The notes under the pieces: generated by a model | Seen by the model: only the letters and a program-made list of their open reading frames with translations | What the model was told of the DNA's origin: nothing | Databases searched by the model: none | Position numbers and translations under genes: made by a program | Part shown: positions 2,609 to 11,172 of the stretch, piece after piece | How positions within the stretch are numbered: position 1 is the first letter of the stretch | How the letters are laid out: each line of letters starts with the position of its first letter | From: Telopea speciosissima | Lineage: Eukaryota; Streptophyta; Magnoliopsida; Proteales; Proteaceae | Assembly: GCF_018873765.1 (NCBI RefSeq) | Contig: NW_025317361.1 | Coordinates: forward strand, 62,001-126,000 | Direction of reading: 5' to 3' | DNA: 64,000 nt

Positions 2609-3403
2609 TTAGTAAAAATACACGTGCAAATGCACGTGTAAGCATTTGTTAAGTGTTTGGAGAGCAAATTATTTTGGTTTCATAAGATAATGAGATTTTC
2701 TCAATGTGCAAAATAATATCTAGTACTCGACATTTTTTCAATAAATATTTATGCATATCATAAAACATTATGGTATAAAAAATGAGAGACAGAATAGTAT
2801 AAATGAATACTAATAAATACACACTGAAGGAGCAGTGGTAGATAGCTTTGTCGTTTTTAGCAATTGATTTTACAGACTTAAGAGAAAGAAATGGTGATTG
2901 AGTTAACACGAGATTAGAGCATTTAAAATATCATCAAGATTTTGTATCCATTGAAGACTGTATTCTTAAAATGGGCCAATGTAGTTTAGTAGAAGAGAAA
3001 TTAGCTAACCTTTTTAACTATTTATTGATTGAGATACTTAGTGTTCTAATACGATATAATTCTCCAATTCTTTCTAGATATTTTAACAGTCTACAATTTC
3101 ACAACAATTGAACCAAATAAGGTCAAATAATTTGCATGAAGAGAGAGAAAGAGAGTTATAAGGGTACGATACAGATTAATAATCTATAAAGTTCATTAAA
3201 AAAGAGTTTATGAGGGATAGCACAACCAATATATAACAAAGGCATCCTATAGAAAAATAAGAGGTAAGACTTATAAAATAACAGAGAACCTATGGTAAAA
3301 GATAAACAAGTTGGAGACACAATTTTGTAAATTGGGTTCTCTACATCATCAAATACCAATTCTCATGACACTACGATTGAAGTTTAAATGAAAATACTGA
3401 TAA

Positions 3404-3490
3404 GGGACTTAGTGGATTTGAACCACCATCCTCTTGAAGTATGGAGTAATTCTCACACCCCAAGTACTCTGCCAATTGAGCTAAAGACCC
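3404..3490 (-). pseudogene. degenerate tRNA-like sequence
   Basis: The minus strand has a D-arm-like block (TTTAGCTCAATTGGCAGAGT), a T-arm with the B-box core GGTGGTTCAAATCCACT, and terminal 7-mers GGGTCTT and AAGTCCC that pair with one mismatch. The central part is too long and irregular for a confident anticodon stem, so I assign no amino acid. It could be an old tRNA or organelle-derived tRNA copy, or the head of a SINE. Confidence 0.35.
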
Positions 3491-3914
3491 ACATTTAATA
3501 CTTGTGAAATCAAGAAAAGAAAAATGCTATTAACCAGCAAGATATATGTGCCAACAAAAACCCCTACTTGCTTATTATGCTGGTATCTATGCCACTACAC
3601 TTAATCGGAAAGAGTACAAAAATTTTAATCTATTTCTTTCAAAGTCCACATGCAGTCAAAAATTCAAGTCAAAGTTGAAATAAAAACAAAAGTATCATCC
3701 ACATGGGGGAAATCAAATATTTTATCTGTTTACTAAACCTAGTAAACTCACACATGCATACCCACGTGTGCCAATATGTTAAGAGAGAGAGAGAGATAAA
3801 ACAAAATAAAAATATGATCATACACAATGTCCTATTAAATGGGATGATTCAAATGTTAGCTAAAAATATCATGATTAAGGTACAAAAACAAAATAAAATC
3901 TGACGTATGATACT

Positions 3915-4592
3915 GTGGGATACTTTGATGCCATTCGGCTCCTAGTTTCAGGGTGAAATCAAGATACAATGCCGGTGTTCGGTTATATACTGGAGAACGG
4001 ACACCCATTGCTTCCCCAGCAATAACTCTGACTTCAACTCCATCTTCTTCTATTGTCTTAATGGTCCTTCTTTCGCAATTCTTGATAGTTGGGCTCAATC
4101 CTTTGAGTTTGGGATTGAATTTTGGATCCGGGGACTATAAGATTTTTTAATGTACTTTTAAAAGTTGAAAAAGAACTAAATTGAATTGTTATCCCACTAC
4201 CAGCACTCATCACCCAAAAGATCAACTTGTTATTTAAGTTTGTAACTCGAGAATTTATATAAACACAAACCTCCAACATGTAACTGTCTCAAAACCTGAA
4301 AGGATACAACCTAAATTAGTTTTAGAAAATAAAGAAGAGACAAAAGAGTGTAAAAAGGAACCATAAAAAATTAAAATTTAAAGTGCAAAAAAGTGCATTT
4401 GGACCAATTGGTAAGACTCTCATACCTCTATAAGGATGGTCTGGGAATCCAGCAGGAGCAGTAACTACAAAAGCAAGCAAGACAAGAACTAAGTAAAAAT
4501 TATGCATTTTAAAAGTAAGAGCCATAAAAAGGGGGAGAAGAAGAAACCTACCAAAGAACTCATCCAACATGAGGAAAGGATCAAAAGAGCAT
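3915..4592 (-). pseudogene. pirin-like gene fragment (captured, broken)
   Basis: Pirins are nuclear cupin-fold proteins. In minus-strand order there are exon-like blocks with splice sites: 4592-4552 ([10 protein letters not shown]), 4464-4426 (TAPAGFPDHPYRG), 4295-4271 (FETVT) and a longer block at about 4135-3915 (IEPNYQEL ... VEVRVIAGEAMGVRSPVY ... LYLDFTLKLGA). These match successive parts of plant pirins. The small exon sizes and phases fit (TTTG|GT and TAG|TT rejoin as Val). The FETVTYML exon has lost about 4 bases, shifting frame. The next block (normally GHKGTI through VQWMTAGRGI) survives only as a trace near 4200. The match stops abruptly after HQSIP. It directly follows the sucrose synthase piece on the same strand inside the putative Helitron, and is not functional. 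Confidence 0.8.
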
Positions 4593-4763
4593 CTAAATAG
4601 AGAGAAGTTAGAGTAAGATAAAAGAAAGGGTGCACTTTCTTTGTCTGGGAGCGCATCTGGGCGCAGGCTAGGCCTAGACACATTGGGTATGACGGTGGCT
4701 GGGTTTGGGTCATTGGGGCTGGGCTAGACAGATTGCATGTGTAGCCATATAAAACGGTTAGAT

Positions 4764-8773: not shown

Positions 8774-9198
8774 CTAAAGTAGGAAATATTTGCAATGGTC
8801 ATTTGTAAGTGCCTGAGAAGATTTGATAATCTAATGAAGATCCGTATCCATTAGTTCATAAACCAGACAAACATCTTGAAACTTCTCCTATGGATAGGCA
8901 GCATAACATCCTTCAAACCAATCACAGTGACATGTCGTAGATGTCAAAGGAGTTTCAGTTCCCATAGAGTTCTCAGTGCATCAGAACGATTCTCAAAGGC
9001 ATTGTTAATCTTCTTAGTTGCAACTTTCTCATTCGTTTCCCTCTTGATAGAAGAGCACACTATACCATAAGCTCCTCTTCCGATGGGCTTAATAGGCACA
9101 CAGTTTGTGTCAATCTCGAACAAGGTTTGCCACATCAAGTAGTAATGTTTTCCTTGGGATCCCATTCCATAGGGGGCTCAACCAGCGTAACCATTTCC
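8774..9198 (-). pseudogene. group C MAP kinase first-exon pseudogene (MPK1/2/7/14 type)
   Basis: It matches the N-terminal exon of plant group C MAP kinases: [37 protein letters not shown] (glycine loop), [21 protein letters not shown]-like GLKDVML, and LVYELMDTDLH. It starts after a CAG acceptor (the family has a 5' UTR intron) and ends exactly where intron 1 normally begins (family YFLFQ, here TTTAG|GTATGG). Damage includes a 1-bp loss after LVEPP, another after RRSFK, AIKK changed to ATKK with the lysine kept, and three stops. Each stop fits a single C-to-T change: Arg CGA in LLRHLRH, Gln in DLHQII, and Gln at the exon end. Kinase subdomains VI-XI are absent from the neighbourhood. Retained splice sites rule out a processed retrocopy. 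It is part of the putative Helitron cargo. Confidence 0.85.
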
Positions 9199-9959
9199 CT
9201 GCAAGTTGATACAATCCTTAATGATCAATCAAAAAGATGAAGAACCGATTGTGCAACAGCAGCAATTAATTTTGACATTTAGAGATCCTTCTGTATGAAG
9301 GATTGTATATACCCCTACATAATCAATCATGTAGCACCAGACACCTAGATTAGAGAATTTGAGGCCCTCATCACTGTGATAAAGTATGTGGGATTGATTA
9401 CCTGACATAGAAGCAAATGCTTTCTTAATTACAGGGCAATCAGTGAAGATGCCAGCCCAGATACCATAACCAAACACTAATGAGATTGAGAGAGTGAATG
9501 CTTAAAATTTTAAGCAATAACCTACAGTTGCTAGTCTTGGGAGTGGAAAGAAACGATAAATTAATCTGTACATGAAATTCTAGTTCCAAGAAAAATCAAT
9601 TCTTGGTTTTATGGAAAAGAAGGATATCTGAGTTCCCCTGCTGGACCAAGTCCCACTATAATGTTTGTAATAAGTCCTGCCTCTAAGAAATCCGACATGT
9701 TCACTATAAAGCTCTTCATGCAGTCACTATAAACCTATAGAAATTGAAACCCATGCTTCAGCATGAAAATGTCATAAAAAAAGTTTCAAAAAAAAAAAAA
9801 AACCCAAGTAACATATATTTAAGGTTAGGTTAAAAATACAGATAATCAATTTAACAACATAAATGTCAATTTATGATTCATACAAGTACCATGATTTTGT
9901 TCAAACTGTGGACAATCCATAAAAATAAAGGGGTTTTGAGGATCACCAAAGTATCATAC

Positions 9960-10089
9960 ATTTTGGTTATGTTTGCGTTCACATATTGGACACCTTGCCA
10001 TAACTCAAAACATGGGTCTCCTCCACTTGGAATCCATCCAGGAAGGACAGGGTAGCCCAGCGAGGCATACAAGCTATTGATAGCAAAAA
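9960..10089 (-). pseudogene. STRUBBELIG-receptor-family kinase exon fragment (captured)
   Basis: A 130-bp minus-strand block between a GGCAG acceptor and a GTATGA donor encodes FAINSLYASLGYPVLPGW, SGGDPC and WQGVQYVNANIT. This is the characteristic N-terminal ectodomain exon of LRR-V receptor-like kinases of the SRF family (family pattern VAAINSLY.ALG.P.LPGW..SGGDPCGE.W.GV.C). The conserved second cysteine is changed to tyrosine (QYV for QCV) and GE to FE, so it is decaying. No LRR or kinase exons follow. It is the most 5' recognised captured fragment of the putative Helitron. Confidence 0.75.
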
Positions 10090-11172
10090 CTGCCAAATTA
10101 AAGAAAATAAAGCATACTTCAGTTCTAGGAACTCATCATTCTCATAAAATTTATAATAGGAAGAAAATAAAATAAATAATTTGGGAAACCGTACAGAGCA
10201 GACCATTACAAATGCCATAAGGACCAATCAGGAAATAAATGAACTGATAACTATTTTCCAGAATCTGCAGATCTATTCGAAGGAAAACAGGCTACAACGT
10301 CAAAATTCATCCTTACTATCTCACGAGTCAGTGTATTCGCGAGTAAATTGGCCAGTCAAAATCACCATAAAACCAAAGTAGATGCGAGCATAGATCTACC
10401 AATTCAAGTAACCCATGGCCAATCTCTACCTACTCACACTACAAGAGCTCGGCTTTTCCTGTCAAAATTCCTTCTGCATCAATATTAACGAAACCTCTTT
10501 AGCCTGAAAGTCAAAAAAGCAAAATAAGAAGAAGATAAACCAATGCTAGTGACGCTAATTCTGCTACAAACAAATGAAATCAAGCTGTGTACTTTTGCTT
10601 CAAATTTCTGGTGTCATTTCTACCACTGATCAAGTTTTTCACCATCACACTGATTGCCATTGCATCTGGCCTCTTCTTCAATCCCTGATGACCAAAATAG
10701 CATAGTATTACTTCGGTCACATTTGCAGTGAATGGGACTGAGGAAAAGAGACTTGAGTTATAGGTTTGATTGGTTTGAACAACTGCATCGAAGAGAAGTG
10801 ATAACGGACTATGGATCAGAGATGGTAACACAAGGTTCGGTTACACGTTCGAGAAGTACACCTTAATTTCGAGCAATAATTGAATCACGAATTAAACAGA
10901 GAGACAGGAATTAAAGAAAGAAGGGGGAAAAGTATTTCAGGAAATAAATAAATAAATGGGTACTAAAAACGGTTTAAGAATTAAGAAAAAATAAAATAAA
11001 ATAAAAACCTAAGGGTTACCAATTTTTGGGATAAATATAATAACAAAAAATGGGAGAGATAATGAAGAAAATATGATATTTAAATAAAAAAATAGGATAA
11101 AATAGTCAAGTGAAAAAATAGTCACGAAACATGAGTTCGTACATTTATATAATAGTATGACATATGAGAAAA

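What the first reader, a model, noticed from the sequence alone, without database searches (positions are those of the whole stretch)
2609..11160. Probable Helitron that captured at least four unrelated genes in one orientation
Seen: fragments of an SRF receptor kinase (10089-9960), a group C MAPK (9198-8774), sucrose synthase (5085-4764) and pirin (4592-3915), plus an unknown duplicated exon, all on the minus strand, with splice sites kept and mid-exon breaks. The minus-strand 3' end shows hairpin, CTAA, then T. Known: this combination is the hallmark of gene-capturing Helitrons. Inferred: an 8.5-kb chimeric element that could be transcribed through several foreign exons into a fusion RNA.
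Basis: partly seen in the sequence, partly recalled or inferred. Interest (0 to 1): 0.8.

Follow-up and report, generated by a model that had tools for sequence, protein, structure and literature searches.

The report
Gene-capturing plant Helitron with mosaic cargo
This stretch is most likely a rolling-circle jumping element of a plant that picked up pieces of at least four unrelated genes, and related elements elsewhere in the same genome look like intermediate steps; gene capture by Helitrons is known, so it is a clear new example, not a new kind of system.

Summary
Both ends are repeated in this 823-Mb genome: 3' hairpin + CTAA (43 matches) and 5' TCATACTATTATATAA (44 matches), the window included. 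Three other complete elements share both ends but not the cargo; the closest sets the cargo at 3698-10910. The SRF, MAPK, sucrose synthase (SUS) and pirin fragments are real and in one orientation. Their best host matches lie on four contigs (C9, C5, C4, C7), which speaks against segmental duplication. A fossil inner Helitron 3' end at 3739-3770, with a junction shared by the C1 copy, suggests bypass of an earlier 3' terminator. Not shown: that the 8.55-kb unit moved as one piece (no second full copy found, G before TC, empty site not searched for), or that any fusion RNA exists. MAPK has stop codons; SUS and pirin break mid-exon. A good multi-gene Helitron of a known kind.

The parts
2609..2639 (-). 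Helitron 3' terminus: 20-nt palindrome (2620-2639), then CTAA at 2612-2609, host T at 2608
   Evidence: 43 matches in own genome, window included; 16 ends of this layout printed from the fetched loci (window included), 15 followed by T
2609..3697 (-). family 3' body shared with many other elements; homology stops at 3697, or at about 3599 in another subgroup
3403..3490 (-). tRNA-like sequence with a short intron, resident in the family 3' body
   Evidence: Rfam RF00005 46.9 bits; ARAGORN hit in 14 of 17 sequences scanned, window included
3739..3770 (-). fossil inner Helitron 3' end: imperfect hairpin 3749-3770 and CTAG at 3739-3742, followed by G instead of T
   Evidence: counterparts that end elements at C2, C6 and C11:15399378
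3912..4588 (-). pirin fragment (exons plus introns), broken mid-exon at 3912
   Evidence: PDB pirin E 3e-12; match to C7:26958186
4764..6234 (-). sucrose synthase segment (exons within 5085-4764; upstream part to 6234 shared with the C2/C6/C7 elements)
6582..6684 (-). unknown duplicated exon, copy B
   Evidence: no family match
7045..7137 (-). unknown duplicated exon, copy A; 6785-7855 is absent from the C11 copy
8687..9311 (-). MAP kinase fragment with internal stop codons
9939..10589 (-). STRUBBELIG-receptor-family (SRF) fragment with intron
10590..10910 (-). cargo of unknown origin shared with C11:31201k and C2:11964194
10911..11160 (-). Helitron 5' block beginning TCATACTATTATATAA at 11160; base before it is G
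   Evidence: 44 matches, window included, aligned ends, 89.6% over the block in the complete element C10:32640257-32636834
11168..11332 (.). flanking palindromic MITE-like repeat, 66-nt arms, outside the element

Best explanation
A non-autonomous Helitron of 8,552 bases lies on the minus strand, 11160 to 2609. It consists of a 250-base 5' block, a 7.2-kb cargo and a 1.1-kb 3' body. The cargo holds DNA-level copies of host gene pieces. Shown: the ends, the candidate parents, the shared sub-blocks and the inner 3' end. Inferred: a RepHel protein supplied in trans nicks at the 5' TC, peels the strand and stops at a 3' hairpin; when a hairpin is missed it runs on to the next one, taking in whatever lies between. 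An older SUS+pirin Helitron (3' end at 3739) was bypassed in this way and the strand ended at an outer 3' end, an event that predates the split of this copy from the C1 copy. SRF, MAPK and the unknown exon were joined upstream in other steps. The fragments are most likely pseudogene cargo, perhaps transcribed, not a working fusion gene.
For: 3' end in 43 and 5' end in 44 matches (window included, some matches lie close together at one locus, only 40 candidates scored each). Three complete elements with both ends and other interiors: C10:32640257-32636834 (3.4 kb), C11:9195994-9201394 (5.4 kb), C10:17044846-17047872 (3.0 kb). A stands before TC in 24 of 30 fetched 5' loci; T follows in 15 of 16 printed 3' ends. 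Candidate parents on four contigs. Partial-cargo loci: C7:39684k has SUS and no row in the pirin search; C11:15399378 has pirin and no row in the SUS search; C2:41228k, C6:2001k, C6:10208k and C1:52330k have both; C1:80555k has SUS+pirin+inner end+outer 3' body; C11:31198k has SRF+MAPK+unknown exon. Rep domain PF14214: 33 matches in this genome. Terminator bypass was shown experimentally for Helraiser (PMC4778049, passages read).
Against: No second copy of the whole unit among the scored candidates (40 of 1309). The base before TC is G here (also G in L013 and L015, C in L025). No empty site was searched for. C1's 3' end is followed after a TA run by another element's 5' end, and C1's own outer hairpin has lost an arm, so neighbouring Helitrons can look like one and copies decay. 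The inner hairpin is not predicted weaker than that of C2, which does end an element, so hairpin decay is not shown as the cause of bypass. No RepHel copy was linked to these termini.
Confidence: 0.8

Rival explanations
1. Two or more Helitrons inserted side by side or nested at one locus; the outer 5' and 3' ends belong to different insertions and the whole never moved as a unit.
For: Inner fossil 3' end at 3739; end-to-start neighbours at C1 and in loci L013, L015, L024; G before TC; no second full copy.
Against: Both outer ends also occur together in three complete elements; the inner-to-outer 3' junction is shared with C1:80555k, so at least 7328-2609 was copied together, apart from gaps.
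Confidence: 0.17
2. Segmental duplication or rearrangement of host chromosome, unrelated to Helitrons.
For: SUS and pirin pieces lie together at several loci.
Against: Best host matches on four contigs; several loci share sub-blocks with different edges; Helitron ends at C2 and C6; two shared family termini.
Confidence: 0.02
3. A functional chimeric gene transcribed through SRF, MAPK, SUS and pirin exons.
For: One orientation; SUS splice donor and acceptor kept. Maize Helitrons do give chimeric transcripts (PMC4528327, abstract and passages).
Against: Stop codons in the MAPK frame, a one-base insertion and a mid-exon break in pirin, a mid-exon break in SUS; no RNA data available here.
Confidence: 0.06

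Closest known systems
Maize gene-capturing Helitrons (e.g. Hel1-331/332/333; PMC4528327, abstract and passages read)
   Same: carry captured host gene pieces, and produce chimeric, alternatively spliced transcripts in maize; same asymmetric end layout (recalled)
   Different: other terminal sequences and other cargo (recalled, not compared here); transcription here untested; here a fossil inner 3' end and partial-cargo relatives let a stepwise order be proposed
Helraiser/Helibat read-through (PMC4778049, passages read)
   Same: bypass of the 3' hairpin to a downstream terminator is the capture mechanism proposed here; TC/CTAG ends and 3' palindrome
   Different: there shown in cell culture and traced in bats; here inferred from sequence in a plant
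Pack-MULEs (PMC13317346 passages; features recalled)
   Same: carry host gene fragments
   Different: have terminal inverted repeats and target duplications; here asymmetric TC/CTAR ends recur in other elements

Membership tests
Helitron (non-autonomous, gene-capturing) | 5' end TC, conserved among copies | tested here: met
   exact CATACTATTATATAA after T in 23 of 30 fetched 5' loci, window included (L036 shows the same place as L013; L029 was mis-set by the pattern)
Helitron (non-autonomous, gene-capturing) | 3' hairpin shortly before a CTRR end | tested here: met
   ACACGTGCA/TGCACGTGT hairpin, then a spacer and ACTAA; 16 ends of this layout printed, hairpin energy -9.2. The pattern did not find an end in every fetched 3' locus (no row for L002 and L008)
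Helitron (non-autonomous, gene-capturing) | insertion between A and T without target duplication | tested here: inconclusive
   T after the 3' end is met; the base before TC is G in this copy although A in 24 of 30 loci; no empty site tested
Helitron (non-autonomous, gene-capturing) | other copies share ends but not interior | tested here: met
   three complete elements
Helitron (non-autonomous, gene-capturing) | captured host gene fragments with separate parents | tested here: met
   four fragments, best host matches on C9, C5, C4, C7
Helitron (non-autonomous, gene-capturing) | RepHel source in the genome using these ends | tested here: inconclusive
   PF14214 has 33 matches, but its copies were not linked to these termini
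Pack-MULE | terminal inverted repeats at both ends | tested here: not met
   none of the 21 inverted-repeat pairs of 18 or more bases joins the two edges; the palindrome 11168-11332 is a separate flanking repeat

The most novel reading that the evidence does not exclude
This genome keeps a ladder of intermediates (SUS-only, pirin-only, SUS+pirin, SUS+pirin with a bypassed inner 3' end, SRF+MAPK, and the full mosaic), so one multi-gene Helitron can be resolved step by step as serial bypass of 3' terminators and joining of neighbouring Helitrons, in a family whose 3' body also carries a resident tRNA-like unit.
Probability: 0.4. Interest if true: 0.55.

Novelty: new member of a known kind. Interest (0 to 1): 0.4.

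Why it matters
How Helitrons collect several unrelated genes is mostly argued from end products. Here one genome appears to hold partial stages and a fossil inner terminator, so the order of captures and the bypass model can be tested by comparing real copies. It also warns annotators that exons of four genes here are transposon cargo.

Tried and rejected
Segmental duplication: rejected (best host matches on four contigs). Pack-MULE: rejected. Unknown exon: no Pfam or PDB match (the C7 relative also none); nearest places C7:64448037 (81%) and C8:54263643 (73%); still unexplained. A junction at 6785 looked like a capture edge, but the C8 match (query 154-548) runs across it, so it is left open. 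Whether RepHel copies carry these termini was not pursued. The empty-site test was not done: no relatives are held for this genome. Species was not established; the assembly size recalls Telopea (waratah), from memory only, and the five papers listed included no genome paper on it.

Full report
Setting. The window is G000:C25:62001-126000 of an 822.9-Mb assembly of 1,287 contigs. Genome searches score only the best candidates, so counts are lower bounds.

Ends. On the minus strand the element reads TCATACTATTATATAAATG... from 11160 and ...ACACGTGCATTTGCACGTGTATTTTTACTAA to 2609, followed by T. The 121 bases at the 3' edge have 43 matches in the genome and the 136 bases at the 5' edge 44, each list including the window and a few neighbouring matches at one locus. 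Of 30 fetched 5' loci (window included; L036 shows the same place as L013), 23 have the exact motif and 24 have A before TC; the window, L013 and L015 have G, L025 has C, and L029 was mis-set by the pattern. A pattern scan of the fetched loci printed 16 distinct 3' ends, window included, 15 of them followed by T and L050 by A. It printed no end for L002 and L008, which were fetched as 3' matches.

Same ends, other cargo. Pairing the two lists gave three further same-strand pairs within 25 kb (C11, 5.4 kb; C10:17044841, 3.0 kb; C10:49172936-49157214, 15.7 kb) and three 5'-to-body pairs (3.2, 10.9 and 23.5 kb). Three were read in full and have both ends: C11:9195994-9201394, C10:17044846-17047872 and C10:32640257-32636834. 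In the last, 89.6% identity covers 11160-10911, and 3' homology starts again at 3697 (3697-3140 at 82%, 2719-2610 at 74%, nothing reported between). No same-strand match to the cargo lies between those points. Hence the cargo is taken as 3698-10910. The other pairs were not read.

Gene fragments and parents. PDB and Pfam searches support the four fragments (SRF and MAPK Pfam scores are below the curated cut-off, SRF's PDB match is weak, and the pirin piece had no Pfam match). Best host matches with open exons: SRF C9:11458928 (90%; next C1:46489362, 79%), MAPK C5:1324515 (86%; next C4:2139627, 83%), pirin C7:26958186 (91% over 231 bases), SUS C4:68627654 (85%). The host exons of MAPK, pirin and SRF pass Pfam cut-offs. 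Only exons inside the fetched stretches were seen, so 'parent' means best candidate. Introns of SRF and pirin align too, so capture was at the DNA level. SUS splice sites are kept. The MAPK frame has stops, and SUS and pirin break mid-exon.

A mosaic in steps. The interior search gave 87 matches (40 of 1309 candidates scored). C11:31198k shares 10910-7856 and 6784-6093 (93-96%) but not 7855-6785. C1:80555k shares 7328 to the 3' end with gaps (86-98%). C2:41228k and C6:2001k share 6234-3739 with gaps (82-93%) and end in their own Helitron hairpin and CTAG|T. C7:39684k shares SUS DNA; none of the 24 rows of the pirin search lies there. C11:15399378 shares the pirin part down to 3740 (68-84%) and has its own 3' end; none of the 8 rows of the SUS search lies there. 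C6:10208k and C1:52330k carry SUS and pirin at 70-89%; their ends were not read. C2:11964194 shares 10916-10200 (91%) and, further on, a weak 5'-block match (73%). The absent rows could also reflect later loss, so the order is a proposal.

Inner 3' end. At 3739 the window keeps an earlier terminus: CACACGTGGGTATGCATGTGTG, then AGTTTACTAG, now followed by G. Its predicted DNA hairpin (-5.3 kcal/mol) is weaker than the outer one (-9.2) or that of C6 (-9.3), but not weaker than that of C2 (-4.1), which does end an element. The C1 copy has the same junction to the outer body, with a 14-base loss in the inner hairpin; its outer hairpin has lost an arm too. So the join predates the split of these two copies. 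The simplest account is bypass of the inner terminator, as shown for Helraiser (PMC4778049, passages). Whether the hairpin was already damaged when it was bypassed cannot be told.

Autonomous source. The Helitron-like N domain PF14214 has 33 matches in this genome, 7 of them listed without stops. It rings in none of the 14 named control genomes, which says little as their kinds were not checked. No RepHel copy was tied to these ends.

Literature. Multi-gene capture and chimeric transcripts from Helitrons are known (PMC4528327 abstract and passages; PMC13317346 passages). Searches for Helitron with Telopea or with Proteaceae listed one paper each, with one mention of each term (listings only). 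This bounds only the held library.

Verdict. A genuine gene-capturing Helitron of known kind, with an unusually legible history. Single-unit mobility and expression remain open.

Noticed in passing
window 3403-3490 (minus), and L042, L050, L052, L054, L058, L059, L061-L063, L065-L068: The family's 3' body carries a tRNA-like unit, in 13 of the 14 hits with a 13-15-base intron (called Met, His, Leu or Arg by ARAGORN; 14 of 17 sequences scanned, none in L053, L070, L085). Mean pairwise identity is 0.928 inside and 0.87 in the rest of the aligned body in 14 copies, which were fetched as the best matches of this region: a hint of constraint.
   Followed up: partly
window 11168-11332: MITE-like palindrome with 66-nt arms (94% complementary) begins 7 bases outside the Helitron 5' end.
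   Followed up: no
L013, L015, L024, and C1 at about 80560538: Helitron 3' ends followed at once or after a short TA run by another element's 5' end, that is, head-to-tail neighbours.
   Followed up: partly
window 58658-59559: Array of 66-base tandem repeats in a GC-rich stretch (53-57% G+C from 54 to 64 kb, 34-49% elsewhere in 2-kb steps).
   Followed up: no
window 60735-62051 (minus): Reverse-transcriptase and RNase H-like domains of a retroelement, probably Ty3 type (type recalled); described only.
   Followed up: no
window 44881-46700 (minus): Glycerol-3-phosphate acyltransferase of RAM2 type (HAD_RAM2_N and acyltransferase domains).
   Followed up: no
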